Assembly: GCA_000310025.1 (NCBI GenBank) | Contig: FN649732.1 | Location: 2,086,811 to 2,150,810 of the forward strand | DNA length: 64,000 bases | Source: Ectocarpus siliculosus | Lineage: Eukaryota > Sar > Phaeophyceae > Ectocarpales > Ectocarpaceae | Direction of reading: 5' to 3' | Part shown: positions 2,445 to 56,915 of the stretch, piece by piece | How positions within the stretch are numbered: position 1 is the stretch's first letter | Layout of the letters: each line of letters opens with the position of its first letter | Notes under the pieces: generated by a model | Databases searched by the model: none | Seen by the model: only the letters and a program-made list of their open reading frames with translations | What the model was told of the DNA's origin: nothing | Position numbers and translations under genes: made by a program

Positions 2445-4238
2445 CTCAGCGCACCCTACCCCCTGTACTCGCCAAAATATCGAGTACGGAAATAGCGCGC
2501 CGTCGCAAAAACTCCGTGATTTTCTAGATCCGAAAAATACACCGGAAAGGAACAAAACACGAGACTCCGTACCGAGAGGGTCGGGATCTTGCGGTAAGAC
2601 GTGACCCCCAGGGTTTCCGCTAGCTTCTCGTGCATGTCGAAGCTAATCTCGTGCATGGGCACCGTCGGGCCGCTGCCCCAGCCGCCGGCCAGGAAACCCC
2701 CGGCCTTGCCGCTGGCGGCGGCGGCGACGTTGCTGCGCTCGATGACGATGGGCTTCACTCCCCGAAGCGCCAGGTGGTAAGCGGTGCTGGCTCCCACTGT
2801 CGTTGTCGTCGTCGTCGTCGTCGTCGTGATCGTTGTCGTAGGTGGTTTTCAATTTTTTGTTCCGCGCGATTATTATTGGGGCGGTTTTAGACATGACAGC
2901 GGACAAAAAGGGAAGGAATCGTACCACTTGAAACGGTGTGCCACCCAGAAACCATGTGGGACAAACACAGCTTGATATGAGGGCAAGTTTTTTAAAGGCC
3001 ATGCTGGGGCGGCCAACGACCACTGTTTTCACGGCAAACGTGGGCGGGGGCACATAGGTCAAGTACACGCGGGCGTCTCGTATTTTGAGATAGGTTTGGG
3101 AGACAAGCATGTGAACAACCTGTACCTTTTCGGGAGCCAAGCGCAAGACATTTGCGGGGCGTTTATTTTCGCAGGGACCAACTGCTGTGCGCGTTGACAC
3201 TTTGTGTGCAAAATCGTTACCACGGGTTCCACAATGTGTGCCGGAAGTCTTGGCAGCGAGTGGTGGACAAAGCCTGCCGGATGCTGGGTGTATAATTTGT
3301 TCCTGGCTGTTTTCGTACCGGCTGTAGCCTCTGACTCTATTCATCGGTCCGCTTATGAGGGCCGTAGATGCTAAGTGGATACACTTCCTCGTCAAGTTAT
3401 GTTGCGCGGCAAGAGTGTGTGTAGTCTTGAAAATTCCGTACAGCAGTATCGGACAGCATTCACAAAGCGGCATCTGCACAATTAAGTGACGAGGAGCGGG
3501 CTAACTGCAACGGACCATCCGACTCTGGTAATCAAATGGCGTATGCCCATCCACGAACACAGGTGGTTCTGCTCACGTCGCGCGAGGAAACATTTGTATC
3601 GCAGTGAAAGAGCGACGCGCCTGTGTGACTGCTGCGTTTTGCTGCGGCATGGCATGCACACACCGTATTGTACTTGTAAATAGAACCTCGAACGTGTAAA
3701 ACTGCTGTAGTCTGAAAGAACGCAAGACTTTTGTCCTTGGTGTCCCGATCTGTACACGTTCACTCCCAAAGTTTTGTTGGCGCACACGCTGTCAATTGTG
3801 GCGGGCTCGGAAACACGCGTGATGACAACAGATGCAATGCTGGCACGGTACTGCTGTGTGCCGGCATTGTTAAACTCCGAGATATCTAAATCCATTCTAT
3901 TCCGCCGCATATTTACACATGTGTGCACGGGTACACCGGTACACCGGTGCCCACTTGGGCTTCCTCGAACTATCCGCCTACGTCATACTTCGCAGCCCTC
4001 TCTCACCTATTCCGCCACCGACGATGACCACCCTTTCCTCGGCTCCAAGTGGCGGTGAACCCATTCTCAAGGCTCGTTGCCCGCCCCTCCTTGTCACTTC
4101 CACAGCCGATCTGGTTGATAGAGGGGTATTCGCCACGAAGGCTGTAGAGGGCCGTGCGCAGCCAAATGCAACCGTTACTGCAATGGCGAGATGTCCGAGG
4201 CGGTTAGCCGTGGCTGCTGGCAGCAGAGGGCTTGGCAT
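587..4238 (-). CDS. FAD-dependent oxidoreductase (DAO fold), plastid-type leader, 5 exons, 3' end beyond the window
   Basis: Exons 4238-4007, 2796-2573, 2097-2011, 1584-1378 and 655-587 join with matching phases (exon 1 ends in phase 1, the rest in phase 0) at GT-AG junctions. The start at 4238 gives MPSPLLPAATANRLGHLAIA, a signal-peptide-like leader, followed by PSTAFVAN, which resembles the ASAFAP motif that routes stramenopile proteins through the four plastid membranes. The mature part opens with the dinucleotide-binding motif VVIVGGGIVGASTAYHLA, split by intron 1, then VIERS, the acidic end of the Rossmann strand. Further on come a WLDG block, VTPLELTTKLMDAAKEKGAE and VVVAMGPWS, which match the DAO-family order. 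Such enzymes oxidise amines or amino/hydroxy acids with FAD; the substrate cannot be told. Roughly 250 residues are visible. The C-terminal part, with the second FAD-contacting glycine motif, should lie left of base 1. Introns carry microsatellites and an inverted copy of the 460-bp repeat. Confidence 0.87.
1049..1150. repeat. (TG)n and (GA)n microsatellites
   Basis: A TG run and two GA runs lie in the intron of the oxidoreductase gene between exons 1378 and 655. Long open frames here are artefacts of the repeats. Confidence 0.9.
1640..1775 (-). repeat. Interspersed ~460-bp repeat, inverted 3' fragment
   Basis: Bases from GTACTCATAGTCGTGCATGC through CTTCGCGCTTGGTGATGTG (read inverted) match the 3' part of the repeat at 1-470. 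It lies in the intron of the oxidoreductase gene between exons 2011 and 1584. A second, weaker copy of the GTACTCATAGTCGTGCATGC end follows at about 1795-1835. Confidence 0.65.
2330..2445. repeat. (CCA/CAA)n microsatellite
   Basis: A run of about 115 bases of CAC, CAA and AAC triplets lies in the intron between the oxidoreductase exons at 2573 and 2097. Confidence 0.92.
2795..2832. repeat. (GTC)n next to a splice acceptor
   Basis: Read on the minus strand this is a GAC run ending in AACGACAG, directly before the acceptor of the exon starting at 2796. It replaces the usual pyrimidine-rich tract. Confidence 0.75.
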
Positions 4239-4239
4239 C

Positions 4240-6400
4240 AGCGAGACGAGAAGGGTACAAGTAGGACTACTAACGGCGCATGAGAGAGGGGGGGGGGTAA
4301 TTGACGCGCAGCCCCGGGTGTTCACCGCTTGGATTTTGGTTCCAAAACAACATGAGCTGACATGAGCAACCTTGTTTGAGTGCAGCAAAAGTGACACATA
4401 TGCGCGGAGACCAACGGTGCACAACAACAACAACAACAACAACAACAATGTATGCGCTCCATGCGCTACTGCTATACGTCACGCACAGTTACACATCCAA
4501 TGCGCTCAATTCCTGGGTGTCACAACGTGTCACGAAAGTAACACGGATATCTGTTTCTAACGCAGAAGACATTTTGACGGATTTCCGCCGCCGCCGCCGC
4601 GCCACTGCTATCGTCACACACAGAGCTCCGATACCACGTCCCCCGCGCCGCCCTACTGCAGGCTCTGGCACCTGCATGGAATTCTACAGGATCGTCGACG
4701 CCCGTCCCATGGTCGAAGAGGATGGGAACACCAATCGGTCAGGGTCGAAGATGTTCCCTGTGGGGAAATCTATGTAGTCTATGTCCGCTGCGACCTTGTT
4801 AGAGGCGCCTTATATATATTACGCCGTCTAGCGGATTCAGTGGTATCCTATGGTGATGATATGAGCCTCAAATCAGGCAAATGTGGCCACCCACCCCCGA
4901 GGCGTTCAAATATGCAAACGATGTCGGCCTCATCCCCCCCCGAGGCGTTCAAATATGCAAAGGAGGTCGGCCTCGGCCGAGCAGGATTTCATGGTGACTG
5001 AGTTTGACGTCACCAAACAAGAGATGTAGTCTAGGCGGGTGGGCAACAGGTGGTTGCGCATAGTCTATGGCACGCGACCCCACGCTGCTGTCCACCAATG
5101 GCCTTTGCTCGACCCCGCCGTTCGTGGCGCAAGATAGTATCAGGTACAAATTGGTACCAATTGCGTGGCGCACGCGTATCTCATTGTCTGGCTTCGGGGG
5201 CGCGCGCTATACAAACCGAGTTGCGACCGGGTACTATACATTATTCCCCTCGGTGGGTGCCTCTCGGCCGGGCAGCATACAGGTCATGTACATCGTGAAA
5301 AAGAAGTGTGTTTGTGTCTAGTACGTGTAGATCCGGGTACTCTTCGTTGAAAGACTATTTTTGGGTATTATCTTGCGTGTGCCCCTTCAGCTGCCCGCGC
5401 CCACATCCATGACTGTGGACAGGACGCCGAGCTTATGCTACTTGTATGGGTCTCCGCTGGCGACGGCCTCACGCTATAATCTATCGGTACCATAGGACAC
5501 ACCTACGCTTGGTGTAAGAGGGCTACTACAGTAATCGTACAACTCCATTGACGAGAGGGGACAAAGGCCCCACCGACAGGAACGCTACAGCAGTACAGTA
5601 GACATGCACGCAACGAAATATGTTAGTTATTGCACAACGCGACGCGTGGTGGAAGTTACCTGTACCTCCACAACACCACCACAATAATACACACAGCGCG
5701 AAGCCGCTGCCGCGGCGTCGCTTGCAGATAACCCAGCGAAGACAAGAACCTTTCTAACCTTGAAGGTCGAAACACACAAAATTCTGTGCACCGATCGATG
5801 CGGTGCCTATTGCACCAAATCAACCTCTTCACCGGGGCCACAACATCTTAGGCGAAGAGGCCGGAATACAAGCAGCCTACTCCCGTCCCAAGCAAAACAC
5901 ACGAGATCATCGCACTCTCCAGCGTAACTGGACAATTCGCCAGTGAAAGACACGAAGGCATGCATACAATGGATCTGCATCTTGTTGCTGATTTTCGTTA
6001 CTTTCAACTGTATCAGCAAAAATGCTGTATCTTCGAGATATTATCATACATAAAGTGCACAGCGGATGCAACTGAGGGCAAGATTATTGAAAAGCCTATT
6101 TTCTTTTGTCGGGGGCACGACGCGACCGCTGTTTAACGCGCTACCTAACGCTCCTGCGAAGAACCCGGAGCAACAAGCTTCAGTTTGAAGCGGAATTGAT
6201 TGGACACGATCCAATCCGGGGCACGTCATCAATAAACAAACATACGCATGAACGCTGTCCCGTGATAATTGCACGAAGAATCCGCTCCTATCTCCTTTAG
6301 ACAGCGTGCGCTCTTCTGGCGCACCCCACAACTTGATCGTGTCTGTCGTCGCTGACGTCCATCTTGCGCGGAATGGTGGCGGTCCCAGGGTTTTCTGTCC
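4240..6400. other. Region without a recognised gene; short repeats
   Basis: Upstream of the oxidoreductase start lie an (AAC)n run at 4422-4448, a CCG run at 4589-4605 and a tandem pair of about 50 bases at 4885-4975 (CGAGGCGTTCAAATATGCAAA). Short open frames at 5050-5350 and 5650-6330 have no splice context or motif I can support. Confidence 0.5.
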
Positions 6401-6499
6401 ACGGTTACCTCGCTTCCGTCTCCTTCTTTGCCGAGGCCCTACTCCCTGTGGATGTTGGCTTCGTCGTCGTTGTCATCGTCGTGCATCCTGTCGAAGAAC

Positions 6500-7330
6500 G
6501 GACGCACCAATGATGACAAGGTCACTGACACCGCCCCCATCGCCCGGCAGATCCGTCCCCGTCGCCGGGCTCGGCGAACGGGGAGACCGGAACCACGCGG
6601 TGAAGGCGTTCGTTGTCGTCGAAGCCACGGCATCGTCAGCGCCGCCGCCGCCGCCGCCGCCCCGGGCCCCGGATGTCGTCGGAAGCGGGGACCGGGGCGG
6701 GCGCTTCTTCTACCAGCACGGGGACGCCGGCGGACAGCCACGCCGCGGAATCCGCGAGGTTGTCTTGCTGGGGAGATCGGTCTCAGCGCCCGGAATAATG
6801 ATGCCGGTGCGACGTGCCTGCCCACGCCGCCACTTGACCGCGGCCGCGCTCCGTGACACCTTCGGACTGCCGCATTCCTTCTCTACTGACCGCATCGGTT
6901 TGGGGTGAAGCGGCTCGGGAACGGCTCCACCCCAAACCGATGCGGTCAGTAGAGAAGGAATACGACAGTCCGGAGGTGTCGTGGAGCGTTAGCTGTGGTC
7001 ATGTTACGGCATGGGCAGGCACGTCGCACCGGCAGCATTATTCCAGGCGCAGGGACCGATCTCCCGAGCAAGACAACCTCGCGGATTCCGCGGCGTGGCT
7101 GTCCGTCGTCGTCCCCGTGCTGGGAGAGGAAGCGCCCGTCCCGGTCCCCGCTTCCGACGAAGTCCGGGGCCCACGGCGGAGGGCGGCGCTGACGATGCCG
7201 TGGCTTCGACGACAACGAACGCCTTTACTGCGTGGTTCCGACCTCCCCGTTCGCCGAGCCGGGTAATGGGGACGGTTCTGCCGGGCGATGGGGGCGGTGT
7301 CGGTGACCTTGTCTCCACGGCACCTCCGGA
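6500..7330. repeat. Large palindrome, ~400-bp arms (centre ~6917)
   Basis: The left arm (about 6500-6905) and right arm (about 6930-7330) are long imperfect reverse complements around a spacer of about 24 bases. The inner ends read CTGACCGCATCGGTTTGGGG and its complement. The same protein-like reading (MGRHVAPA..LF...) can be read outward from both arms, which confirms the symmetry. A smaller palindrome with the same inner sequence follows at 7345-7410. Confidence 0.82.
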
Positions 7331-7339
7331 CTATCGTCT

Positions 7340-7760
7340 TTCGTCTCTGCTGACCGCATCGGTTTGGGGTGGAGCGGCTTCACCCCAAACCGATGCGTTC
7401 GGCGGAGAAGGAATACGACAGTCCGGAGGTGCCGTGCCCAGGCCGCCGCCGCCGCTGCTGCTGCTGCTGCTATTGCTACTCCTACTGCTGCAGCACGGTT
7501 TGTGTCCAACGACGGCGGCGGCGAGGACCCCGGGCATGGCGGCGACGGCGATGGGGACCAGGGCAGGCGTACTGCCGCCGCAGCAGTACCCACCACCACC
7601 TACCCCCCCCCCCCAGCACGGGGCCGACGACGAACCACGCCGCGGAATCCGCGAGGTTGACTTGCTCGGGAGATTGGTCCCTGCGCAGGCACGTCGCACC
7701 GGCAGCATTACTCCGGGCACAGCGACCGAGCTCCCGAGCAAGTCAACTTCGTGGGTGCTG
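7340..7760. repeat. Two smaller palindromes and (CTG)n tract
   Basis: A second palindrome is centred near 7377, re-using the CCCCAAACCGATGCG motif of the larger one. Another is centred near 7705, pairing GAGGTTGACTTGCTCGGGAG with its complement at 7730-7752. CTG/CTA repeats at 7456-7492 lie between them. No gene is seen. Confidence 0.7.
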
Positions 7761-10700
7761 CTGTTGCTGCTACTGCTACTGCTGCTGCACGGGGTCTGTC
7801 CGACGACGGCGGCGACAGTGACGAGCGGGAGATTGAATCCTCAAGGTCGAACAGCGCGTGGAAAGACTCGGAGATGATGACGTCGACATCGCCCGCGTCC
7901 CTGGATGGCGGCGGCGGTTGTATCGCAGCGTCGAACTTGCCGGTTTGTCCTACGACGACCTATCGCCGCCTTCCCCGTAGCCCGACACTGCTACGGGGCT
8001 GGAGGGCCTTGGCGATCCGGAGGTGCAGGAGCATCTCATGAGGGCTCCATCTTCCAATCCCTCCTCAAGCCCCCGGAGATGGAGACCGCGACGGCCAACG
8101 GCGAGGCAGAAGGCAGCAACAGGATCGATGGCGAGGTGTACGCCGGCACTACGGAAGGAGTTCCTTCATCCATGGCCGTCGGGTACGGTTGCACCTACGT
8201 CGCGAGCGAATCCGTGACTATCGAGAGCTCCGAGTCTCACCGAGACGTCCGCTCGCCCCGCTCGCACGGTGAGACTCGGAGCTCTCGATGGTGACCGATT
8301 CGTTCGCGATGTACGTGCACCCGCACCCGACGGTCATGGAAGAACGAGATACTTCGGTAGTGCTGGTGTACACTTCGTCGCCTATCCTGCTCGTGCCTTC
8401 GGTGTCCGCGTTGGCCCCCGGCCTCGATCTCGGGCACCTTGAGGAGGGACTGGAGGATGGTCCCCCTGAGAAGGTCCCCCTTCACGCCCCGATCGCCAAC
8501 GCCCTGCAGTCCTGGAGCAGCGGCGAGCGACGGGGGCGGCGGTGAGTCGTTGTTTTACAGGCTGGACAACAAATGATCCCCAAACGGCGAGTACCCGTTG
8601 ATGCCGTGGTCGTCTCGTTCTCCGTCACCGTCGAGGCCGGCGGGCACGGCGACGACGGCGGCGGTCACGGCGGTCACGGCGGTGAGAACCGCGGGCATGC
8701 TGGCGACGGCGACGAGCGGAAGATCGAGTCTTCCCTGTCGAACAGCGTGTGGAACGACTCGGAGATGATGGCGTCGACATCGCCCGTGTCCTTGGATGGC
8801 GGCGGCGGCTGTATCGCAGCGTCGAACTGCAGGGACAGGGTGCGCGTGGGTGATGCGTGGGTGTGGGGTGTTCGGAAGGGTGGGAAGGTTTGAGAAGTAC
8901 GGGGGGTGAGTGGGGAACAAGCAGGTTGTAGTTACAATTTCGGCAATTTTCAACACATTCCCGAGGTCGGGCATCCGTACGACGCTGCACAGTCTAGACG
9001 ACAATAGTATTCAGAAAAAGTCAAAGTAGCACCCGCGACGCTCGACGTTATACTCTAACACGAACGTACCACTACAATGGCATTGTTGAGCGAAACCAAA
9101 CGCTGTGGCCACTTCTTACCATGGTCGATTGCCCGCCTCCGGTCGGTTGTCGAACGGCGCGGTCGTCGGATGACCACTCGTGCGGTCGGTGAGTAGTACC
9201 CGGGAAGCCCGCAGCTTGCCCAACACCTCCGCCGCCGTACCCAACGCCACCACCGCAGGCGTCGCCCCCGCCACACGCTCCCCCCTAACCGCCGGCGACT
9301 CCGCCGTGCTGCCAACGCCGTCATCGGCCATCGCTCCCGCCGCCGCTGCCGGCAAGCGGACGTCCCGGGACAGGTAGCGCCGTGGTTGTTTGACGTTGCC
9401 GCAACAACGAGATGGCGGCGTGAACAGCCGAGCGGACAACGAACAGAGCGGTGGGGTCGACGACAGCTCATCGAACAGCATGGAGGAGCTGCTTGTTGGG
9501 CTGTCGTTGCCCCCAACGCTCTGCTCGTTGTCCGCGGGGTTGTCTACACCGGCATCTGGTTGTTGCGGGAATATCAAACAATAACGGAGAATATAGGGTC
9601 CAGGAGTTTGGGTGAGAAGCCGAGGCGTCGCCAACCAAAAACTCGACGCCCATCGGGGGGAGGGGGGTCTGCCGAGCATTCCTCATGATAAGCGCCAATA
9701 TTATTCGGGGTTTTATCGATTACACACAATTCGGGTACCAGCAGGGTAGATTTGAACGGCGCCCCTTTCAGGACGGTACTCGCCTTTGGAAGGCGCATCC
9801 ACCGCTTGACAAACAGAACGCGAACCGGAATTCATGGTGTTTCGAGTGGACAGGCAGGGATCGACACGACCCAAGACGAAGGGGAAATACTGGTACCACC
9901 CAAGGTTTTGGTATCTGCGTACATATGCCGCCCCCCTCGATCACCATGCCATCCTGGGACGCAGCAGCCAACCAAAAGCTCATGCATCATCGATGGTTTT
10001 GAGGGGGCGGGGGGGCGAAAGGTTTAGGCGAAGCACAAACTTAGCACAAAGCTAGCGAGTGGTAGCGGGCCTAGACTATACTTGTTGGTTTTGGGTGGAC
10101 CGGGGCGGCGACGTTGTTGGGCAAACCATCGCACCTTCGCTCGGAGGCACAGGAAGAGTCCGCTTGGGTGTCGATCTTGCGGAGGTCCCCGTGGAAGAAG
10201 AAGGGGACGATGGCTCCGTTACCGGGTCAACCCGTAGAACAGGTTTTCCCACCGATCCCCTCGCTTTCATAGAACGCCGTCCCAGCCGGCCATTGGGGAA
10301 TATATATATATATATATATGACCTCCAAACACAAGACCAACAAGCCTGTTGAAGTTGGCGGGGAGGGGACGGGGTAGCAATATCGGTATCAATATTGCGA
10401 CCCTCTCCCCCTCCCCAACATGAAAAGGCTGGTTGGACGAGTATTCGGAGGTCTGCCGAACGGCGGGCTAGGGCGGCGTTCTATATAGGCGGGAAATCTG
10501 TTCTACGAGTTGACCCCGTGACGGAGTCATCGCCTCCTTCAACATCGGTGTCTGATGTTGCGACCATCTTCTCCCTCCAACTTAAGCAGGCTTGTGGGTC
10601 GTTTATTTGGAGGCGTCCCCAACGGCCGGTTAGGACGACCTTCTAGTAAAGCGGGGGGAATCGGTGAGAATACCTGTTCTGTCAGCAATCGAAATATCAA

Positions 10701-10820
10701 TCCTAGGCAAGAAGGCCCAACGGCCGGTTAGGACGGCCTTCTAGTAAAGCGGGGGGAATTGGTGAGAATACCTGTTCTGTCAGCAATCGAAATATCAATC
10801 CTAGGCAACAAGGAAGACAA
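7680..10820 (+). repeat. 3.2-kb tandem duplication, copy 1
   Basis: This block matches 10868-13900 at an offset of 3192 bases on the left and 3201 on the right; the 9-base difference is one extra GGTCACGGC unit in copy 2. From about 8900 to 10270 the copies differ by only a handful of bases; the outer parts differ more. Copy 1 has an (AT)n tract at 10302-10318 and an extra 99-base repeat at 10624-10809. Inside are palindromes centred near 8256 (22-bp perfect inner arms, TCGAGAGCTCCGAGTCTCAC; total about 540 bp) and near 9480. A direct repeat of about 116 bp is at 7821-7936 and 8710-8826. I recognise no protein. Confidence 0.85.
10624..10809 (+). repeat. 99-bp tandem repeat, two copies
   Basis: The units start with GGCCGGTTAGGACG at 10624 and 10723 and end with AATATCAATCCTAGGCAA. 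They are almost identical. The extra unit is present only in copy 1 of the 3.2-kb duplication. Confidence 0.85.
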
Positions 10821-10867
10821 CAGTCCGGAGGTGCCGAGGAGCGTCAGCCGCGGTCACGCGGCGCCAT

Positions 10868-13800
10868 GTGCAGGCATGCCGCACCAGCAGCGATATTCCG
10901 GGCGCAGCGACCGAGCTCCCAAGCAAGTCAACTTTGCGGATGCTTCTGTTGCTGCTACTGCTACTGCTGCTGCTGCTGCACGGCGTCTGTCCGACGACGG
11001 CGGCGACGGCGACGAGCGGAAGATCGAGTCCTCAAGGTCGAATAGCGCGTGGAAAGACTCGGAGATGATGGCGTCGACATCGCCCGCGTCCCTGGATGGC
11101 GGCGGCGGTTGTATCGCAGCGTCGAACTTGCCGGTTTTGTCCTACGACGACTCACCGCCGCCTTCCCCGTAGCCCGACACTGCTACGGGGCTGGAGGGCC
11201 TTGGCGATCCGGATGTGCAGGAGCATCTCATGAGGGTTCCATCTTCCAATCCCTCCTCAAGCCCCCGGAGATCGAGACCGCGACGGGCAACGGTGAGGCA
11301 GAAGGCAGCAACAGGATCGATGGCGAGGTGTACGCCGGCACTACGGAAGGAGCTCCTTCATCCATGGCCGTCGGGTACGGTTGCACCTACGTCGCGAGCG
11401 AATCCGTGACTATCGAGAGCTCCGAGTCTCACCGAGACGTGCGCTCGCCCCGCTCGCACGGTGAGACTCGGAGCTCTCGATGGTGACCGATTCGTTCGCG
11501 ATGTACGTGCACCCGCACCCGACGGCCAGGGAAGAACGAGATACTTCGGTAGTGCTGGTGTACACGTCGTTGCCTATCCTGCTCGTGCCTTCGGTGTCCG
11601 CGTTGGCCCCCGGCCTCGATCTCGGGCACCTCGAGGAGGGACTGGAGGATGGTCCCCCTGAGAAGGTCCTCCTTCACGCCCCGATCGCCAACGCCCTGCA
11701 GCCCTGGAGCAGCGGCGAGCGACCGGGAAGGCGGTGAGTCGTTGTTGGACAGGCTGGACAACAAATGATCCCCAAACGGCGAGTACCCGTTGATGCTGTG
11801 GCCGTCTCGATCGCCGTCACCGTCGAGGCCGGCGGGCACGGCGACGACGGCGGCGGTCACGGCGGTCACGGCGGTCACGGCGGTGAGAACCGCGGGCATG
11901 CTGGCGACGGCGACGAGCGGAAGATCGAGTCTTCCCTGTCGAACAGCGTGTGGAACGACTCGGAGATGATGGCGTCGACATCGCCCGTGTCCTTGGATGG
12001 CGGCGGCGGCTGTATCGCAGCGTCGAACTGCAGGGACAGGGTGCGCGTGGGTGATGCGTGGGTGTGGGGTGTTCGGAAGGGTGGGAAGGTTTGAGAAGTA
12101 CGGGGGGTGAGTGGGGAACAAGCAGGTTGTAGTTACAATTTCGGCATTTTTCAACACATTCCCGAGGTCGGGCCTTCGTACGACGCTGCACAGTCTAGAC
12201 GACAATAGTATTCAGAAAAAGTCAAAGTAGCACCCGCGACGCTCGACGTTATACTCTAACACGAACGTACCACTACAATGGCATTGTTGAGCGAAACCAA
12301 ACGCTGTGGCCACTTCTTACCATGGTCGATTGCCCGCCTCCGGTCGGTTGTCGAACGGCGCGGTCGTCGGATGACCACTCGTGCGGTCGGTGAGTAGTAC
12401 CCGGGAAGCCCGCAGCTTGCCCAACACCTCCGCCGCCGTACCCAACGCCACCACCGCAGGCGTCGCCCCCGCCACACGCTCCCCCCTAACCGCCGGCGAC
12501 TCCGCCGTGCTGCCAACGCCGTCATCGGCCATCGCTCCCGCCGCCGCTGCCGGCAAGCGGACGTCCCGGGACAGGTAGCGCCGTGGTTGTTTGACGTTGC
12601 CGCAACAACGAGATGGCGGCGTGAACAGCCGAGCGGACAACGAACAGAGCGGTGGGGTCGACGACAGCTCATCGAACAGCATGGAGGAGCTGCTTGTTGG
12701 GCTGTCGTTGCCCCCAACGCTCTGCTCGTTGTCCGCGGGGTTGTCTACACCGGCATCTGGTTGTTGCGGGAATATCAAACAATAACGGAGAATATAGGGT
12801 CCAGGAGTTTGGGTGAGAAGCCGAGGCGTCGCCAACCAAAAACTCGACGCCCATCGGGGGGAGGGGGGTCTGCCGAGCATTCCTCATGATAAGCGCCAAT
12901 ATTATTCGGGGTTTTATCGATTACACACAATTCGGGTACCAGCAGGGTAGATTTGAACGGCGCCCCTTTCAGGACGGTACTCGCCTTTGGAAGGCGCATC
13001 CACCGCTTGACAAACAGAACGCGAACCGGAATTCATGGTGTTTCGAGTGGACAGGCAGGGATCGACACGACCCAAGACGAAGGGGAAATACTGGTACCAC
13101 CCAAGGTTTTGGTATCTGCGTACATATGCCGCCCCCCTCGATCACCATGCCATCCTGGGACGCAGCAGCCGACCAAAAGCTCATGCATCATCGATGGTTT
13201 TGAGGGGGCGGGGGGGCGAAAGGTTTAGGCGAAGCACAAACTTAGCACAAAGCTAGCGAGTGGTAGCGGGCCTAGACTATACTTGTTGGTTTTGGGTGGA
13301 CCGGGGCGGCGACGTTGTTGGGCAAACCATCGCACCTTCGCTCGGAGGCACAGGAAGAGTCCGCTTGGGTGTTGATCTTGCGGAGGTCCCCGTGGAAGAA
13401 GAAGGGGACGATGGCTCCGTTACCGGGTCAACCCGTAGAACAGGTTTTCCCACCGATCCCCTCGCTTTCATAGAACGTCGTCCCAGCCGGCCATTGCGGA
13501 GACCTCCAAAAACAAGACCAACAAGCCTGTTGAAGTTGGCCGGAGGGGGGACGGGGCCGCAACATCGGTATCAATATTGCGACCCTCTCCCCCTCCCCAA
13601 CATGAAGTGGCTGGTTGGACGAGTATTCGGAGGTCTGCCGAACGGCGGGCTAGGACGGCGTTCTAGTATAGCGGGGGGATCGGCGGGAAATCTGTTCTAC
13701 GAGTTGACCCCGTGACGGAGTCATCGTCTCCTTCAACATCGGTGTCTGATGACCCTCTCCCCCTCCAAGTTAAGCAGGCTTGTGGGTCGTATATTTGGAG

Positions 13801-13900
13801 GCGTCCCCAACGGCCGGTTAGGACGACCTTCTAGTAAAGCGGGGGGAATCGGTGAGAATACCTGTACTGTCGAAATATCAATCCAAGGCAAGAAGCGTTT
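10868..13900 (+). repeat. 3.2-kb tandem duplication, copy 2
   Basis: This is the second copy of the block at 7680-10820, with the same palindromes centred near 11448 and 12681. It ends with alternating-orientation units of about 140 bases (13420-13560 minus, 13570-13720 plus, 13740-13890 plus) sharing AACGGCCGGTTAGGACG and related words. The corresponding units in copy 1 lie at 10215-10375, 10390-10520 and 10555-10690. Confidence 0.85.
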
Positions 13901-16900
13901 CTCATGCGGAAGAAATACCATCCTCCTCCTCGAGGGTTACAGAACGGCCGGTGCCACAGAGGCTTTAGAGCAAATTTTCCACCACTATTTCTTTATGAAC
14001 CAGTTCTCTGGCGTGTATGTAGCCTGTCTACGTATACTCAAAGTGTATTATATTTTTGCCCTCCCCAGTAGTCCACCCCTCTAGGTTTTCGTCCAACAGC
14101 GTTTAGTATTCGTTGCGTTGATCCCGGGCGCGAGAAACAACATGAGCTGCGCCCCACCCCCCCAAGCTTGAGTTGGCCCGGGGCTTGTTTACCTTTGGCG
14201 TGTGGGGGAGTATTGGTGTTCTTCAGATGTGTTTGTTAACAAGAAAGAGTTTTTAACAAGAAAGTGCGGGTTAGAGGGGCTTGTCTACTTTTGGCGTATA
14301 CGCGCGGGCGAGTATCGTTGTTGTTAGGCGTGTTTATACCAAGAGTGTACGGGTTGGAGCGCTTGTCCTATTTGAGCCTATACCACACTAATTCGTCGAA
14401 CGTGCCGGATCTAGGAGACTCTGTCATCCATGTAGTTCTAGTGTTTGCCGTGCGTAGTCTAATGCAACATCACAGATCTTCCCGTCGGAAATATGGTAGA
14501 AATATACCTACATATTCGGCGCATAAAAAACATCGTTTGCCACATAAATATCTCACATCTGTCTTTTACAAGAGAAATATGCCCCCGGCAAAAAGGAACG
14601 CTAAGGGTCTAAATCGCCCGCGGCCATCTCTAGACAGTGTCAGTTGTTCGTGGCGTCTGGTACACAACCCTGCGCCACGGTCTGCTCTATATTGGTTGTC
14701 GGAGAAGACCTTAACGGGTAAAAGGGGTACAGGTGGCTTTTGTTGCGGCCGGTTTTATTCACGAGAAGGGTGGGCCGCACGAACATCATGTCCTGGCATC
14801 TGATCTCCACATCTGATGAAGAGCCGCGGGTGCACGCACAGTTTGACTACATATATGTACACACACGTCGGTGGAACAACGCCGTAGGGGTAGCGAACCA
14901 TTACAAACATGAGCTTACCAACTACTGTAAAAGCGCTTTCAACTTTAAACAAAAGAGTCTCAACACTCACATGTCCCTCGCGGTTGGCTTTTCAAGTCTC
15001 CCACCCGCCGTCTCCGGCTTCCACAACGATCACCATCCTCTTCCTGATGTCCCGAAAAGCCAATGTGGTTGTTCTCACTCCAACGCTGCGCGGTGACCCT
15101 GTGGCCCACTCGTGACGCGGTGAGCATGCTGACATAATCCTACAGGGAGCTGAAAGGCTATCCTGTCGGGGCGGTCCCGCTCCTCCCTCTTGTCTGAACG
15201 AGGCGGTAAATAAGATCTGTATCTGCAACCAACCGCCTACAGGTGTTTGCCTCAGGCGAGCGCACAGAAGAAGTGTCACAACGCTTGTAGGTCCCACGCT
15301 ACGGTCGCGAAGCTTTCCGCTTCCCTCTGCTACTGCCGTCCTATTCCTGCTGCTCCCTCTCTGCCTCGTCTGCTTGTCTGTTCTCGGTTCCACCGTCTCA
15401 AATCGTCAACTGAGCGGAGTCCGCTTTCTCTCTCTCTAGCTCGGCTGATGTGCGGACGGACGGGATACGGCGAGAAGGTTATTTCCTCCGGTGCCAACAG
15501 CAACAAGCGAGGTCGTAAGGTAGTATGATCTTGGTCTTGTATTCACCACCCTGTCTCTGCTCGTGCGTGTCGCTCCTGCTGAATGCCGCGTGATATTGTG
15601 TGAGTGTCATGGGCGGGCGGGGGCCCACGCCCGTGTAAAATCCTCCGCTATAAATGAACGGAGAGGCGTCATTGCCGAGGGGGCGCGGGCGCTGGGGCTA
15701 CAGCACAGTCTCGCAGCGGGCCGATAGGAGGCCTCTATTTTTCCCACCCCCCACACCGCACTGTAGATACATGTAGCTTCGCCCGTCCCTCCCCTCAACA
15801 TGTGTGTCAAAGCTGGAGACATCAAGCACATAAAGCACCAATGGGAGAAAGAAGAAACGAGGCAAGGGGGGAGGTGGAAACTCTGTTGTACCCAACGGAC
15901 GAGTTTCGACGAGTTGTCAACAACGTGGAGGTATATGGATACGAAGGCCCGCAATTCTATCATACTGTCCGAGATATGTCTGATGATTGGTTCTCTACGA
16001 TCAACCCAGGGACTGCTCATGGCCGACGTGATGATTGGTTCTCTACGTTGTGTTTGGTGTTGTCGATGGACCTCAAACGCGGCTGTTTTTTTTCCGGCCG
16101 GACCGGGGGGTCTCCCACACTACAGTTTTCCCGAACGACCCATCGGCCGCCCATGGGCACCCCGTCAGGCCCATGATCTTGCCCATGGGTAGCCCGTCGG
16201 CAGCCCATCGGCGGCCAATGAGAGCCCTTCAACCGTACCAGTGTACTCCTAAACAATAGATTGTCTACTTTTGGAACGGGCACTATTGCGGCTAATAACC
16301 CAAACGCTGACCGTAACCCCAACCCCAATCCCACACGATACGTGCTAGGTTGGCGCTGGTGGCTAACTTCTAGGTTGATGTGAAGGTGGCTAACTTCTAG
16401 GTTGAGGTGCCCACGGTCGGCACTTCATGGGCCGCCCATGGGCGGTTTAGCAAAACTGTCAGTATTGTAGTCTAGTATGGGAGATTGGGACCGGGCTCGC
16501 ACCGATCGCTGTCGTGAGTAGCATGAAGGCGAAATTCAGCTAGAGGTGGTGTTTGGCATATGGCGCCGCGACAACACCGTCACGTACTGCTGTAATGGAA
16601 GGCTCTGGCAATTTTAATCTGTGCTATTGTGCGAGAAGCACTCACGAGGCAGGTGCGCCTGCCTGATCGCGCATGAGGCAGATGGTCGAGACGTCCCTGG
16701 GTGAAAGGGTATCTAGATTATGTGCACAAGTTCACTCACGGTGAGAATAATTATGTGGGTGGACAACGCTCGTTCGTGTCGATCTACGGGACGCCTGTCC
16801 AGACCTAGATGCGTCGATCCACACGAACGTTCTCCACAGAGGATTGATTAGGATTGTTTCAGCAGCGGGGGGACTCGGGTACCGTCATGGCCGTTTTTCT

Positions 16901-21300: not shown

Positions 21301-24300
21301 CCGGTTGGCCTACTGTGTCCCGTTCATGTCATTGGTGTTTGCAGTTGTTCATTCTACCACCACAGCTTCCCGATTCTAGCTCCGAGCTGGGCGGACAGGA
21401 GGCAACCGTGTGCCAATGCGTGGCTATTCGTTCAAACCTAAAAAAAGGGGTGCTGAGAATGCTGAGAGATCATTTACGGCACGCTCCTCTCTTGTCATGC
21501 CCGCCGTCTCCGCATGGTCGGCACACCGAGCATTGTGTACAAGTGTCACGCCTCCGATAGTTGCCACGGGAAAGGAAATCTGGAGCAACACAGTTTCGCC
21601 AACAAAAGTGTTCTGGCTTTTTGTCCTGGCCGCCACACCCAACAACAATACCTTCTCGACGCCAGCAAGAAAGGTCGGGTGTGCACACCCTGGCAGGCCC
21701 GTCCCGACCCCAGCACGGGGACGCGCTCGTCATCATCCCCTGGTGGACAGAAACGCCTGTGGAAGTCCTGGGCGAACTCGAGCTGCTTCAGGACGAACTG
21801 GTCGTCGATCAACCGCGTTACCTGAATTTCGGAGGAGAAATATTGAACACGGGAGCATAAGAATCTCCCCCCCCCCCCCATGGGGATGATCCCACCACGT
21901 TGTGTTAACATGGTCAAGCATCCTCGAGGCAGTTACACAGTGCTTATAGCTGTCTTTGGAAGTGAAAGCACCAGAAAATCAATTTAGTCATACGCAGCTG
22001 TCATCCGTACGCAAGGAAGTAAGCACAATATGCCGAACACCCTTAGCAGGATGCAGCTTACCCTTCATGCGACCCGCCGAAAACCTCACGGCGCTTCGCG
22101 CTTGGTGATGTGAGAGCCTGGTCCGGTGAGAACCCGGCGTGCTCCGTCCCGGCTTTGTAGGGATGTGAGGTCAATGGTCAAACGACTACGGCATACACGA
22201 CTCCCCCCCCATGGTTATTCCATGTTGACAAATACCTTGACCGAACCCAGTTGGATGTCCTAGGTTGTGCTTGTAATGCGAGCCTTGGCCAGCGGTTTGT
22301 TGGTCACTCCAATAAAAAAGAGGAGTGCATCGATGAGAGGTACCGATCCGGCCGGCAAATAATCACTCGGCAAGCTTCAAGTGTACTCTCGTGAAGCTAT
22401 TCACCAAACGAGCTGCAAACGCCTTATGTCTACCGGCAGCAAAACAGAGAGGCCAGTCGATCGGACGCGCTGTCGTCCAATCTCGCTCGGGCATTGTAAC
22501 CTCAATTCGGGTCGATCTCAGGTGAAAAACGAGCGTAACCCTTTCGCACCTCGACCCTCGCTTCGAAGACGAGCTTGTCCTGCCCAATAGTCCAGAGCAG
22601 CTCACGCCGTTGCCCCCGGGGCAGGTGTCCGCAAAGGGGAAGGCGCGGGGGAACCACGACAGCAGGGCACCACACGACCGCCTGTATTGTGTATTGTCGG
22701 ATCCATTCACAGAGGAGCTACTTATTGCGGAAAGCTCGCAGGTAGAGGGCCCGAGGGGAATAACTCACAGTTGCAGTTCAGCACTCAGCTGGGGTGTATG
22801 ATATTGATCGGTTGCTCTTCCCCATTGCCACGCGTTTTCGTGCTCTTGCCTTGATATTGATGGTTCCCCCTCTCGCTGTACCACCGCCGGTGGTGGTCTT
22901 GCGGCGCTCCCTCCCGAACACGCCGACTTACACAGAGGAAACAAGTAATCAAACCGCACGGATTTTGCGAGTGCGAAAATTCGAACGAAAAGGATCAAGC
23001 CAAGAGGGGGGAAGTTCAACCGGCCGCGTGAACAGAGCTGCCCCGCAAAACCGCCAAATTGGGTAGTTGCGTCGAAACTCGGCAACAACAGTAGCCGTAC
23101 GGCATTTCTTGACAGCAACAGTAATCTTCAAAGAAAGCAGCGACAAGGATTGCCTGCTCCATCTCTCTCACCATGGAAGGCGCCCGTGTGGTCCCTTGGC
23201 ATGGCCACAGTCATTCTGCTGACCCCAGCGCCGGCGACCTCGCCGGCCGCACCATGATGATTATCTGAAGCAAAAGTATACCATATACATACACGTGTTT
23301 GCGGCCGTTTCACCAGATGGCCGTTCTTGTTCGAAGAATGCGGACGGTTGAAAAAAAAAAGAAAGGTGTGCTGTGTGCGGGCGCTCTACGCGAAGGACTC
23401 CGATCCGCAGCATGCAATAGCGGCGGTCTGTACGCCCGGCGTCGCACGGCAGCACCGTGCGCACCTACCTCCGGGCTGACGGTGGCCTGGTGCAGGACAA
23501 ATTACTCCCCGCGTCCCGTTGTTCCCGCTCCCGCCACCACCGTCGACGGGCTGGCTAGGCGCTGGCTTAGCCACGGGGGGGTTGGTTCCGTCGGCGTCGG
23601 AAACCGGGGGGTGAGTCCCAATTGCGTCAGCGGCTGCCTCGTCGGTTTCGTCGACTTGACCGCCGCCGTCGAAGTGCCACTGCTGCTGCGGGACTCTCAC
23701 CGCTCCGGGTACCCGAGCCGCAACCCCGCTGCCGCCGCCGTCACCGCCGCCACCGATCGGCATCCGCCACGTGTGATCGGCCGGGCTAGGGCGAGGTCTT
23801 GGGGAGGTGCCGCAGTAGATGTCGACGGCGTCAGGGTCGCAGGTCGAATGTCGAGCCTTCGTTGCGGCCGTGGCGGGTCGAGTTGTGCAGAATCGACGAC
23901 GTGAAAGGAAGGAAAAAAAAACGAGAAACAATGACGCAATTTTCTCGTGTTTGGCCGGGCCCACCGACGGCTCCATAAAACGGTCAGGTGTAACTTGGTG
24001 GTATTCCCCAAGAGGAGTGGGCGGTGCTGTTCGGTGAGCAAGGCGACGTAGAAGTGGGAGACACTACAATATTGCCAATAGGTCAGGGGCAGAGGGGGCT
24101 CGATACACCGACAGCTGCCAGTCGGGCTCGTGCGACAACGGAGGGTTTGGAAGGTGACGGCTGCGGTGGCGGTGGTAGTGGAGACGGCCGCGGTAGCAGA
24201 AAACGCACCCGCTGCTTAAGAAGGTAGGATGGAAAAAGCAGGGCTTGGAACGACACGGCGATTGTCTCAGCGAGCGTGACGGAAGGCGCGGTTTCCCGCG

Positions 24301-27300
24301 TTTTCCGATGAGGTTCTCAAGCAAAACAGCGCTTGCGCTGTTGAAACCATGTCTACGATGACGTGATACTTAGTCATGGTGTCTAGCACGCCCTGGATGC
24401 GCACCTCGACAACTACAGAAAAAATACTCGAATTTCTTCATCGTGATCAGTATTGACAAGACAGTTATACAAGTGCTGTTCTTCGCTATTGAACACCAAC
24501 CTCACCCAACGGTTTCGTTCCACTTACCGTGAGTGAAACACTGTTGCCCGCAAAGACCCAAACCCAGGCAGTGTCAGAGGTAAGACACCACGATCTGTGA
24601 ACAACAACTAAACTAATTTCTCTCGACGCGGCCCCTAGCCTAAGCCTCGCCCTCACCTGAAGAGTCACCAAGGTTTCCGAGTCCACGAACCCGGACCTGT
24701 CTTCCTCCCCTGCAAACACAGACACATCAAGATCTCCAAAGGGATCTTCTGGATAGGAATCCGGGCCCCATCGAGTCGCCCTGAGCGGTGTCGGTAGCCG
24801 AAGGGTGGCGAAAGCGGCCAGGGGATGCGGGCCCGTCGTCCCCCCTCCCGTGTCCGTTCCGAAGGGAAGCGAGTACCACCTGTTGTCGTTCGATCGAAAA
24901 GTGAAAACGAAGATGTGGGGGAACAGCGGTTTAGACGAAGGGATGGGGGGTAGCACGTTTGAGCGGTGGTCATCGCCGTGATTGTCTTGTACATGTTCGC
25001 GGGGTGTGAGAACGATCACTCGTCAAGAAATATCGTTGGGTTGGGGCCCGGTTCACCCGCGATCAAGCTGTATTGACGTCCGATTGGCGCCGTCGACAAA
25101 CAGGTGACACGTGGCAACCCTTCAAATGTTCAGTACTTCAAAACCGCGCTCTGTAGTGCTGTATATTCGCAGCTGATCCCCAAACGTTGGACTCACACGT
25201 CTGCGTGGATTGCAAAATATTCCTCTTGGTTAACATTTGAATGTACTCGTCCCATCCAAATCTTCCCGTAAGTGAGCCACTTGCTCAAAAACAAACGGGA
25301 AATGCTGGGATTGTTCGCGTGGCCTTTCGATCATAGAAATGTTTTGGGCACCAGGCAATGCTGCACCGTGTCTACTCGCCGTTCCTAACGATCATATGCC
25401 GACCGTCTGGCTCGCCACCACCCCACCCACGAAGGCCCGGCAACCCTAGGCCCGCATGAAGAAGCCGTCCATTCTCTTTCTTCATGAAAGGGAAATTTTC
25501 AGGGTGTATAGCATGAGGAGTGCCTTCCCTGCACTGTACCAGGGATATGCCGACCACTCACAAATCTCTCCTCCCCCTCTCCTCCCGATCCCCCCCTCGG
25601 CCTTGTTTGCCATCGGGGTTTGGGTTTTCGTCGCTTGGCAACGACGTTGTAAAACAAGCCCCCCCCTCGGTGTTTGCCATCGGAATTGGGTTTTCGTCGC
25701 TTGGCAACGATGTTGTAAAACAAGCCATTTCACTTCGTGAACTCGGCAACCAGGTTACCGTTTTGTTTTTTTTACCTCGTTTTTTTTTTTTGGCGGTAAC
25801 CATAATGGTGGTCGAGTAGATCATGTTGTGCGGGGTAGAGAACCCTCACTCCGCGCAACGGGGGATGATCGCACCACGTTGTGTTAAAATGGTCAAGCTT
25901 CCTCGAGGCAGTTCCACAGTGCTTACAACTGTCTCTGGAAGTGAAAGCACCAGAAAATCAATTTAGTCATACGCAGCTGTCATCCGTACGCAAGGAAGTA
26001 AGCACAATATGCCGAACACCCTTAGCAGGATGCAGCTCACCCTTCATGCGACTCGCCAAATACCTCACGGCGCTTCGCGCTTGGTGATGTGAGAGCCTGG
26101 TCCGGTGAGAACCCGGCGTGCTCCGTCCCGGCTTTGTAGGGATGCGAGGTCAATGGTCAAACGACTACGGCATGGACGACTATGAGTACACCCCCCGCCC
26201 CCCCCCCCTCTCCTCTCCTGCCGCTACTACGTCTGTTGCGACGACTACACAACTACTACTGCTTCTACTAGTTTTGCCTATCGACAATGATGCACACCTC
26301 ACCTTCCCTCTAGCACCACCCTTGGAGGCCCCACCACCCTCACCCGGACTGTAAACCTTACTCTCTTCCTCCTCGGCGTCGCCACCTGTCCCCCCACGGA
26401 CCCCCTGGTAGCACCACCCTCTACCCGCCCGGGCTCTTGAAGAACGCCCCCGAAAATACCTCGATCGTCGAGCGTTTCATCTGCTTGGGCCGTGGCTGCG
26501 AGGATACCGATGCCGCTGCCGTCGAAAGCGGGGGCTAGCGGGGACGGCGGCGGCGGAGGCTCCGGGCAAACTACCGCCATGTGAATCGGGGCCGGTGGCA
26601 CGGGCTTCCATGGCTTAGAGGCGGATGCCGTGGCGGGGCGGGGGGACGTGTATCCCCTTACTCCATCCCATGGTGACGAAATGACTGCGCCTGTGCGGGG
26701 CGGGGACGGGGCAGGGGATAGAGTTCCCTCGTCGCCCCCCTTCAATCCAGCGGCGGGGCCCTTCCAGTTGAGCAGAAGGCGGTGGTGGGTTTTACCGCGG
26801 GAAACCCAGGTGTAGAACGACAGACGTAGTGGCCGGTGCGGGGCTTGGACGGCGTAAAGGCTGATGGCGGTCGGTATGCCGTTGTCGTTGCTTCGCCCCG
26901 GTGCCCTCGATCCGTCGTCATGGGACTCGAGGGTGATCTCGAGGCACGCTCCCCTCTCTGTAGGACATGGGGTCTGGTAGAAGGCGGCCTGATGCGGGGG
27001 GGTGGTAGTTTGGGGGGTTTGTGAGAGGCTGGAATGAGGTGTCGGACAACGCTTACGATAGCTGAGGAAAGCAAACCTGACAGATGAGCGGGATAGAGGC
27101 AAAGGAGGCCGGGGGGGGGGGTGGGGGGCTCAGAGACGTGCGGCACCAGTTTTGTTCATGGATAGTCTTGCTCGTAGCACTCTGGCATTTTGGGGTTTAG
27201 GTACGCAGCCTCAGAACTCCAATTGGTTCATCTTTCGGCGGGAACGAAGCCAAGCTGTCTCTGCCGCAGTAGGGTCACCGTCTTCAACCCGGAGCAACAC

Positions 27301-54296: not shown

Positions 54297-56835
54297 GCCG
54301 CCAAAGCCAAGGCCTTGCCTCAAGCGTCGCTCACACCGACGGGAGGGGGCATTCTTCCGGACAAGCGACAAAAACCCCGTCTTAGCGTCTTGTTTCTGTC
54401 ACTGCTGTTTTCGATGTTTTCTGATGTTACCTATTTTTTTTGTTAGATTGCGGTACCCTGCCTACATAAAGGAAGAATTGCCGCGGCATCTTGTATATTT
54501 GTTGCGGCATGATTCGTTGGTAAAATTCGGTGCGCTATAGGCTGGGTGGGCCGTCCGCCCTCCCTTGTGCTCAGTCACGGTCTGCGGCTTTCCCTTTCCC
54601 CACCATAAGTGTGGTGGGCATGGAGACTTGCGGTCCTCCGCAGCGGGGATGCACGATTTCACAGCGCGTGGATTCGGAGTGTTGATGATGCGGCATATCT
54701 CTGTTGTTCTTCGTCGCGGCTTGAAATGACGGGGGACGCACGGGCTGCATCGTTGTGGTAGCGGCCGCGGTTAGCTTGTAGAGTGGGAGGTGATCGCGAC
54801 TGATGACCGCTGGGTCGAGCAAGGAGGCTCGCGTACACAATGACACAGGAGGCGGGGTAAGGTTGGTTGTAAGCCGCTGAGTTGCCGCTCGTCCTCTTGA
54901 TGTACGGGAGGTGCGTGGTCCAAGCCACGGAACAGTGAATCAGCTCGAAAATTCTGGATTCCAATAGAACACGTATCATTGGCATGAAGTAGTTGCTGCG
55001 CGTGTGTATCTGTCGCTCGTCGTGCCGTGGGCTGTCTGGCTGTCGTGTCTTGTGTTTCTGGGCGCAAGTCTGTTCCTGTCCTACACCCTTGATGCCGACG
55101 TCGAAGCTTTCAAACTTGCACTCCCTGCACCATTTATTCTTCCTGAGGCCGGCTGCTTCAGCGATGTCTTTTTTTGTTTTGCTGTCGCTCCGTAAAGCGC
55201 GGCGACACCGGGCAAAGCATTCGTGGGTGTTACTGTCATGTTCCACGGCGTTGGCCCGTGTTTTGTGCGACCTATTGTCATGAAGCGTACGTAGCATCAA
55301 GTCCAAATTCCCACTTCCCCACATACACGTTGCGCGAATCCCCGACATCACTCAGCTCGGACGTTAGCCATCAAGAAGAGAGACCTGGCTGTCCGGGAAA
55401 CAACGTTTTCCGCGACATCGTCAAGCATGCATGCTCGCTACATAAGTAGCGGAGCTTGGTACGTGTTCCGAAGGTCGACCAACCATCGAATGAATGCTCT
55501 GGGCAAAATTGATGTTGTGTCATCCAAAATCTGCGAACGATCAAGCCCTTCCTCGTGCTCCACGTCCCTTTGTCTTACGACGGAACGTCATTCATGCGAG
55601 AGAGCAAGGGGACGTGCATGACGAGATTCATTCCATCACCTGCGAATGAACCTTGTGAAACACCGAAGATTCTCTCTCGAGAATGCAAGGAGGGCCCGAA
55701 GATGATTGGTGTTACGTACCCCGAATTGATGGCGGGAAGCGAGCGGAAGTGCCTTGCTACGCCTGTCGCGTGGCGGCTGACCTCGACTCTTGGTTTACTT
55801 GACTCTGGGACAGTTGTAGGTTATGTATGTGCATGAAATGACAACACCACTGCGAACGGTGAACAATGACTTGTACGAACGTCCACAGAATGCTGGTCGA
55901 TTTCCGTTGGGTTTTATCTCAGCAAGATGAAACAGTGAGCAGATGCAGTGACGCGGTCTTTGCTTGGTTGAACTAAGAGCTGTAGGCGGGGATGACTTTA
56001 TTGAATATTCTATCGGAACCGCATCAGTTTTTCGTTTACCGGTTTAAGAGTATGCACCCTGGCCGAACCGCATTACAGTGAACCTTGCGGTTTTCTTGGC
56101 CTCTATGCCAGTTCGATATGAAACACTATTCGGCGGATATGTCGTACACCTTCGTGACTCTAGGTTCCAGGTTCAACTATAGCTCAGGAGCGCAGGCTCG
56201 CAGTTTTGCAGTGAAGAGCGCAGAGTGAGTGCAAACAACAACGGGCGGAAAGTGATTGCTGCGCCCTCCTCCCGGTGGGCAACGAGGGCAAGCACCACAG
56301 GAGGGAAGGTAGATAATGCTCTCGTGTAACCACGGTTCGTCGTGATGACTGGACAACATGGTCAGGGAGTACCAAACTTCGACGATATTAGCACCCTTCT
56401 CGAGATAAAAAATAACATTCAGCACGCACCGCAGCAGGGAGGTGGGGCACGAAAAAAAAAGAAAAAGGAGAAGAGAAAGCCCCGCCTCCTGTGTGACCCG
56501 GGATGGTTGTATACGTATGCATGCATAGCTTATGCAGCTGTACGGAAAATAGTAGAACTCAATGCATACACACACAGTCAGTGTGTGTACAGTACACGAA
56601 AAAATAGGGGACTGTCGAAAACGGACACACAAACGACAGGCAAGCGCCGTCGATGTCAATGCTACAGAAGCACAGTTGCACACGTCGTGTGCGTTCACCG
56701 GCGCGTTATTGCACGATTGTTTCACGCGGTAGTTGAGGGATGAGACACGACGGAAATATATTCCCCCGAGATTCCCCCGAGATATTTTCCTAGCGTGTGC
56801 ATCAAAACCAATCATATACACTATCGTTATTCGTG

Positions 56836-56915
56836 CCCATGGGTACCCATGGGTACCCGTGGGTACCCACGCCCCATGGGAACCCATGGGTACCCATGGG
56901 TACCCATGGGCACAC
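56836..56915. repeat. GGGTACCCAT satellite, short cluster
   Basis: Alternating CCATGG and GGTACC palindromes give GGGTACCCAT units in near-perfect tandem over about 80 bases. This is the same word as the longer array at 57550-57970. Confidence 0.9.

What the first reader, a model, noticed from the sequence alone, without database searches (positions are those of the whole stretch)
6400..13900. Array of nested palindromes embedded in a recent 3.2-kb tandem duplication
At least six palindromes (centres about 6917, 7377, 7705, 8256, 9480 and the 10.2-10.7 kb units) follow one another, then most recur in the second copy. Shared words such as GAATACGACAGTCCGGAGGT link the palindromes, so one short unit seems to have been copied in alternating orientation. 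I know no element class with this layout; foldback amplification or replication-fork template switching could produce it.
Basis: partly seen in the sequence, partly recalled or inferred. Interest (0 to 1): 0.82.

Follow-up and report, generated by a model that had tools for sequence, protein, structure and literature searches.

The report
Cluster of unrelated DNA palindromes, partly duplicated
In a eukaryotic (probably seaweed) genome, six imperfect hairpins built from four unrelated sequences sit side by side in 4 kb, and half of them were copied again in a 3-kb tandem duplication; it looks like a local hot spot of inverted copying that could feed RNA silencing, rather than a new kind of mobile element.

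Summary
Six imperfect palindromes (A-F) lie in 6515-10540, arms 79-90% alike. A 3.0-kb tandem duplication (7679-10714 vs 10864-13895, 95.7%) repeats D, E and F, not A or B. None of 30 randomised windows gave a comparable palindrome. Palindromes fill 3397 of 7381 bases of the block, 877 of 56619 elsewhere.

"One short unit in alternating orientation" holds only for A, B and C. D, E and F are unrelated to these and to one another, so four sequences were each made palindromic. No target-site duplication of note and no protein domain was found. The left arm of C is an inverted copy of A's right arm 0.5 kb away (95%). Best reading: a hot spot of fold-back inverted duplication or template switching on partly gene-derived DNA (F units keep a coding signature), then tandem duplication. 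Transcripts would form long hairpins, like palindromic small-RNA loci of Ectocarpus (PMC4513859), but transcription is untested and the arms show no pairing constraint. Species unidentified; the collections searched hold few or no algae. New member of a known kind; modest interest.

The parts
6515..7313 (.). Palindrome A, arms about 395 nt, 90% alike, 12-nt spacer; holds the b (core) and a (outer) units in both orientations
   Evidence: RNA fold -816.5 kcal/mol, z -57 against 20 shuffles
7316..7436 (.). Palindrome B, a second copy of A's core, joined directly to A's right end; its centre resembles A's centre with 11 nt lost between CGGCT repeats
   Evidence: centres printed, the 11-nt loss read off by eye
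7612..7761. Palindrome C; left part 7612-7686 is an inverted copy of A's right arm 7047-7124 (95% of 75 ungapped columns; 91% with the gap), right part 7682-7761 groups with the 10.85-kb unit (84% of 79 columns)
7811..7937 (+). 127-nt direct repeat d, first copy, before palindrome D (second copy 8702-8828, 88%)
7945..8561 (.). Palindrome D, arms about 290 nt, 79% alike, 24-nt spacer; both arms can be read as related peptides (67% identical over 49 residues), with frame-shifting gaps between the arms
8702..8828 (+). 127-nt direct repeat d, second copy
9380..9587 (.). Palindrome E, arms 100 nt, 79% alike, 8-nt spacer
10200..10540 (.). Palindrome F (first copy); 158 nt between the well-aligned arms, with an (AT)n stretch in the left arm that the second copy lacks
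10560..10813 (+). Further F units in direct orientation, including a 98-nt tandem repeat (10618-10715/10716-10813, 97%)
10810..10941 (+). Half unit b-a (81% to 6955-7086) at the start of the second tandem copy, without inverted partner beside it
10864..13895 (+). Second tandem copy of 7679-10714 (95.7%)
11138..11751 (.). Palindrome D, second copy
12581..12788 (.). Palindrome E, second copy (0 substitutions in 208 bases relative to the first)
13401..13734 (.). Palindrome F, second copy (120 of 145 ungapped columns alike, 39-nt spacer)

Best explanation
A hot spot of repeated local inverted duplication in a eukaryotic nuclear genome, probably a brown alga. At different times short stretches, at least some of them derived from protein-coding sequence, were copied next to themselves in inverted orientation, by a snapped-back 3' end or by template switching at a stalled fork. 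This made palindromes, most with short spacers, from four unrelated sequences (A/B/C, D, E, F). About 3.1 kb carrying D, E and F was then tandemly duplicated, and an inner 1.6 kb stayed or was made nearly identical. If transcribed, the block gives long double-stranded hairpins that Dicer could cut to small RNAs. Shown: anatomy, unrelated families, no target-site duplication of 4 bases or more beyond chance, local inverted origin of C's left arm, tandem copy. Inferred: the fold-back mechanism, homogenisation, the organism. Not shown: any transcription or function.
For: Spacers of 12, 1, 30, 24 and 8 nt for A-E. A/B/C, D, E and F share nothing beyond short matches at chance level (best E 0.008 over 26 bases), so the neighbourhood rather than an element is what recurs. 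C's left arm matches A's right arm at 95% (75 columns) but C's right arm at only 80% (45 columns). Flanking direct repeats at A-F are no longer than random intervals give. Arm identity of 79-90% suggests separate events. F units keep one reading frame: 12 of 20 variable columns at third positions, P 0.007 for any of three frames. The window has further palindromes at 38991-39370, 56833-56913 and 57555-57970, so the genome seems prone to this. Hairpin-mediated fold-back inversion is established in yeast (PMC7467729, abstract).
Against: No junction proves template switching; the C junction shows at most a few bases of shared sequence. F does not have a short spacer (39 nt in one copy, 158 nt in the other). 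Coding signature is absent in A and E and weak in D; in F's two arms the third-position excess (P 0.006) is not matched by amino-acid identity (P 0.14), and no value survives correction for 17 segments and 6 frames. The F stretch was chosen after it was seen. No genome, second individual or algal collection was on hand; searches in other collections found nothing. Third-position bias between F arms could also mean that already diverged genes were brought together.
Confidence: 0.58

Rival explanations
1. A selected small-RNA locus: a cluster of long hairpin RNAs (hpRNA or proto-miRNA type) made from inverted gene fragments, diced to 21-nt RNAs that silence the parent gene family; tandem duplication raises dosage.
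For: Very stable predicted RNA hairpins (A z -57, D z -18, second F z -17), as any inverted repeat would give. Ectocarpus has many candidate small-RNA loci in 'complex, extensive palindromic' regions (PMC4513859) and 21-nt AGO-bound RNAs (PMC12867755, passages); Phytophthora inverted repeats make 21-nt RNAs (PMC3804510, passages); Drosophila hpRNAs occur in tandem clusters (PMC10317233, passages). F units look gene-derived. G:U-compatible mismatches lean to one strand, 54 of 87 pooled over A, B, C, first D, E and second F, P 0.03.
Against: No RNA data. Palindromic parts differ more between the tandem copies (46 of 1222, 12 of them in the 76 bases of C's right half) than the rest (25 of 1781), the reverse of constraint. 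Changes in D between copies do not favour pairing: 16 of 20 leave one copy matching the other arm, about 86% being expected by my own reckoning. No single palindrome shows strand asymmetry (lowest P 0.20 of 9); the pool mixes related arms and leaves out second D, first F and the 39-kb palindrome, the last leaning the other way (8 to 11).
Confidence: 0.25
2. Nested non-autonomous fold-back or miniature inverted-repeat transposons.
For: Palindromic form; B is a second copy of A's core.
Against: No exact flanking repeat longer than 5 bases within 8 bases of the ends (repeats of 2-3 bases or decayed ones would be missed), no shared terminal sequence among families, no match for the 11 block ORFs scanned (10 in Pfam; 7 in PHROGs), no copies elsewhere in the 64-kb window.
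Confidence: 0.08
3. Assembly artefact: haplotypes or chimeric clones falsely joined into tandem and inverted copies.
For: The copies are a mosaic of a nearly identical inner part and flanks of 86-99% per bin, as a join of two haplotypes could give; the record holds 100 N.
Against: 71 substitutions and 10 gaps separate the tandem copies and arms differ by 10-21%, so no sequence was simply read twice; three further palindrome sites exist elsewhere in the window.
Confidence: 0.1

Closest known systems
Complex palindromic small-RNA loci ('weak miRNA candidates') of Ectocarpus (PMC4513859, section 17 and passages)
   Same: Extended, complex palindromes over several hundred bases in a brown-algal genome.
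   Different: Small-RNA output not testable here; species not identified here; section 17 mentions no tandem duplication of such a block.
Drosophila hpRNA clusters (hp-CG4068, hp-tHMG cluster; PMC10317233, passages)
   Same: Long inverted repeats, some derived from coding genes, in tandem arrays.
   Different: There one hairpin unit is repeated and (for tHMG) its targets are named; here four unrelated hairpins are mixed and no target is known.
Inverted-duplication origin of young MIR genes (Allen et al. 2004; recalled, seen only in the reference list of PMC4513859)
   Same: Hairpin arms apparently derived from coding sequence, at least for F.
   Different: Parent gene not found; processing unknown.
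Hairpin-mediated fold-back inversions of yeast (PMC7467729, abstract)
   Same: Inverted duplications explained by single-stranded hairpins, without a transposon.
   Different: Those are gross chromosomal rearrangements; here small interstitial palindromes.
Fold-back transposons such as Galileo and Tetris (PMC3573991, PMC4079207; search listing only)
   Same: Long inverted repeats; Galileo's are internally repetitive.
   Different: No clear target-site duplications or shared termini here.

Membership tests
Fold-back / MITE / TIR transposon | Target-site duplication flanking the element | tested here: not met
   Exact direct flank matches of 4 bases or more within 8 bases of the ends: A 5, C 4, none for B, D, E, F; 432 of 2000 random intervals give 5 or more. 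F has 2 bases exactly at its ends. Duplications of 2-3 bases or decayed ones are not excluded
Fold-back / MITE / TIR transposon | Common terminal sequence among copies | tested here: not met
   Families A/B/C, D, E, F unrelated; only A's core and B share ends
Fold-back / MITE / TIR transposon | Dispersed copies in the genome | not testable with these tools
   No genome held; none elsewhere in the window
Ectocarpus complex palindromic small-RNA locus | Extended palindromes over several hundred bases | tested here: met
Ectocarpus complex palindromic small-RNA locus | Several small RNAs mapped to the locus | not testable with these tools
   no RNA reads on hand
Ectocarpus complex palindromic small-RNA locus | Lies in a brown-algal genome | not tested
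   Eukaryote-like: DAO and EMP70 domains, the latter split over two ORFs, 55% GC; the brown-algal label is my impression and comes from no call
hpRNA / inverted-duplication siRNA locus | Arms homologous to a protein-coding gene | tested here: inconclusive
   F units coding-like, D weakly, A and E not; only the D peptide was searched for, in viral and prokaryotic contigs, without relatives
hpRNA / inverted-duplication siRNA locus | Dicer-dependent small RNAs | not testable with these tools
   no RNA data
Fold-back inverted duplication / template switching | Short-spacer inverted copies | tested here: met
   Spacers 12, 1, 30, 24, 8 nt for A-E; F 158 and 39 nt in its two copies
Fold-back inverted duplication / template switching | Inverted copy drawn from nearby sequence | tested here: met
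   C left arm from A right arm, 95% of 75 columns
Fold-back inverted duplication / template switching | Microhomology at junctions | tested here: inconclusive
   C junction shares about 2-5 bases, read by eye off the sequences; the other junctions were not examined for it

The most novel reading that the evidence does not exclude
A genomic nursery for hairpin RNAs: a locus with a high rate of inverted duplication that again and again turns neighbouring, unrelated gene fragments into hairpins and spreads them by tandem duplication, supplying a brown alga with young silencing RNAs. This would help explain why the 64 Ectocarpus miRNA loci fall into 63 families (PMC4513859, section 17).
Probability: 0.15. 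Interest if true: 0.62.

Novelty: new member of a known kind. Interest (0 to 1): 0.36.

Why it matters
If the hot-spot reading holds, four unrelated sequences in 4 kb converted to hairpins point to a regional mutational process rather than an element. That makes the birth of hairpin RNA genes directly testable by comparing strains and small-RNA libraries. If it is only scar tissue, it still warns that palindrome-based miRNA annotation in such genomes will meet many neutral hairpins.

Tried and rejected
Transposon reading: tested by flank comparison, domain scans of 11 block ORFs (135 stop-free ORFs of 50 aa or more overlap 6000-14200, so most were not scanned) and cross-family comparison, and set aside. 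Relatives in other collections: none for 6500-10820 in phages; none for the 20-mer or for a 28-mer of an unrelated window repeat in viral contigs; none for that repeat in plasmids. The 15-mer gave 27 viral stretches; for so short a word I judge these to be chance and did not examine them. The D-arm peptide alignment found no relatives in viral or prokaryotic contigs; the F peptides were not searched for. These collections are not algal, so the absence says little. Rfam: no match at gathering score. tRNA: none. PDB: one F-unit ORF, best E 0.22, without meaning. Arm-to-arm gene conversion after the tandem duplication: three tight clusters of changes in D look templated, but the overall count (16 of 20) is what I would expect by chance, so it is not claimed. 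Strand-biased G:U pairing: weak pooled signal only. A hub-like pattern around A's right arm in the b unit did not hold in the a unit against the 10.85-kb copy, so it was dropped. The printed list was cut and is not relied on.
Full report
What is there. Self-comparison of the 64-kb window and arm-by-arm alignment confirm six imperfect palindromes in 6515-10540: A 6515-7313, B 7316-7436, C 7649-7754 (wider unit 7612-7761), D 7952-8553, E 9380-9587 and F 10200-10540. Arms are 79-90% alike over ungapped columns. A tandem duplication, 7679-10714 against 10864-13895 (95.7%), carries second copies of D, E and F; A and B are not in it, and of C only the right part, within a half unit at 10810-10941. 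So 3 of 6 palindromes recur. In 30 first-order Markov resamples of the window none gave a palindromic pair of 45 bits or more, against 20 pairs in the real window, 9 of them in the block. Palindromes make up 3397 of 7381 bases of the block and 877 of 56619 bases outside it.

The surroundings. The window looks eukaryotic: an ORF at 2459-2848 (minus strand) carries a FAD-dependent oxidoreductase domain, and two separate ORFs at 50.4-53.1 kb carry parts of an EMP70 domain. GC is 55% and there are 100 N. I take it for a brown alga from its general look; that label comes from no call, and no genome is held. Thirty ORFs of the window were given to Pfam, out of 844 stop-free ORFs of 50 aa or more. 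The 10 from the block matched nothing, and 7 block ORFs, 6 of them the same, matched no PHROG.

One unit or several? Pairwise search among A/B/C, D, E and F finds only short matches at chance level (best E 0.008 over 26 bases). The block thus holds four unrelated sequence families, each turned into a palindrome. Within the A family the copying is local and in both orientations: B repeats A's core, and the left arm of C matches A's right arm at 95% of 75 columns in inverted orientation, while C's own right arm groups with the 10.85-kb unit (84% of 79) and matches its left partner at only 80% of 45. So palindrome C was most likely made by placing an inverted copy of a nearby sequence beside an older one.

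Coding ancestry. F units (one minus, two plus in the second tandem copy) give variants of the peptide RLVGRVFGGLPNGRLGRRS in one frame; 12 of 20 variable columns fall at third positions, P 0.007 for any of three frames, though I chose this stretch after seeing it. Between F's two arms the third-position excess has P 0.006 but amino-acid identity only P 0.14. The D arms give a related 49-residue peptide, 67% identical, with a weak third-position excess (P 0.011) and frame-shifting gaps; A and E show no such signal. One search tested 17 segments in 6 frames each, and no value there survives correction for that. A gene-fragment origin is therefore likely for F, possible for D, and unshown for A and E. 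No parent gene was found; only the D peptide was searched for, in viral and prokaryotic contigs.

Not a transposon on present evidence. Among A-F the longest exact flanking direct repeat within 8 bases of the ends is 5 bases (A), a length reached by 432 of 2000 random intervals; the 39-kb palindrome and the tandem unit give 4. Duplications of 2-3 bases or decayed ones cannot be excluded. Ends are not shared between families, and no copies lie elsewhere in the window.

History. The tandem copies differ unevenly: 6 mismatches in the 1600 bases of 8.68-10.28 kb, 86-99% identity per 100-base bin on either side. Palindromic parts differ more (46 of 1222) than the rest (25 of 1781); by palindrome C's right half has 12 of 76, D 22 of 617, F 12 of 321 and E, inside the conserved stretch, 0 of 208. 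Homogenisation of the inner part, or a haplotype mosaic, could give this. If hairpin pairing were under selection the palindromes should differ less; they do not. Changes in D between the copies also show no preference for keeping pairs (16 of 20).

What it may do. As RNA the palindromes fold far better than shuffles (A z -57, D z -18, second F z -17), which any inverted repeat would. Ectocarpus has many candidate small-RNA loci in complex palindromic regions (PMC4513859, section 17) and a single AGO with 21-nt RNAs (PMC12867755, passages). Phytophthora inverted repeats give 21-nt RNAs (PMC3804510, passages), and Drosophila hpRNAs form tandem clusters (PMC10317233, passages). Passages of the Ectocarpus transposon survey (PMC12477816) that I saw mention no such block; the word hairpin does not occur in its text. 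A small-RNA role is plausible but unsupported by data here. The one hint, an excess of G:U-compatible mismatches on one strand (54 of 87, P 0.03), pools related arms, leaves out second D, first F and the 39-kb palindrome (8 to 11 the other way), and no single palindrome reaches significance.

Verdict. Observation confirmed; interpretation partly supported. It is best explained as a hot spot of fold-back inverted duplication or template switching on partly gene-derived DNA, followed by tandem duplication. Literature searches run. I opened six papers (PMC4513859, PMC12867755, PMC12477816, PMC10317233, PMC3804510 in passages, the first also one section; PMC7467729 in abstract); none of what I saw describes this particular block, but most subscription papers are not held.

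Noticed in passing
38991-39370: Another palindrome (380 bases, 78%, RNA fold -266 kcal/mol), unrelated to those of the block and without a flanking repeat longer than 4 bases.
   Followed up: partly
56833-56913 and 57555-57970: Two arrays of the self-complementary-looking 10-mer CCCATGGGTA and longer periods, each palindromic as a whole and related to each other.
   Followed up: no
1-462, 21882-22202, 25740-26202; inverted at 1642-1783: Short dispersed repeat family, 95-97% alike (inverted piece 88-90%), perhaps a short interspersed element; by eye a similar fragment lies beside the 39-kb palindrome.
   Followed up: partly
9116-9679 and 12317-12880, minus strand: Open frame of 187 codons identical in both tandem copies and spanning palindrome E; the second copy has no Pfam match.
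   Followed up: partly
27432-27620 and 36323-36410: Two-copy tandem repeats of 95 and 43 bases, possibly footprints of the same local duplication tendency.
   Followed up: no
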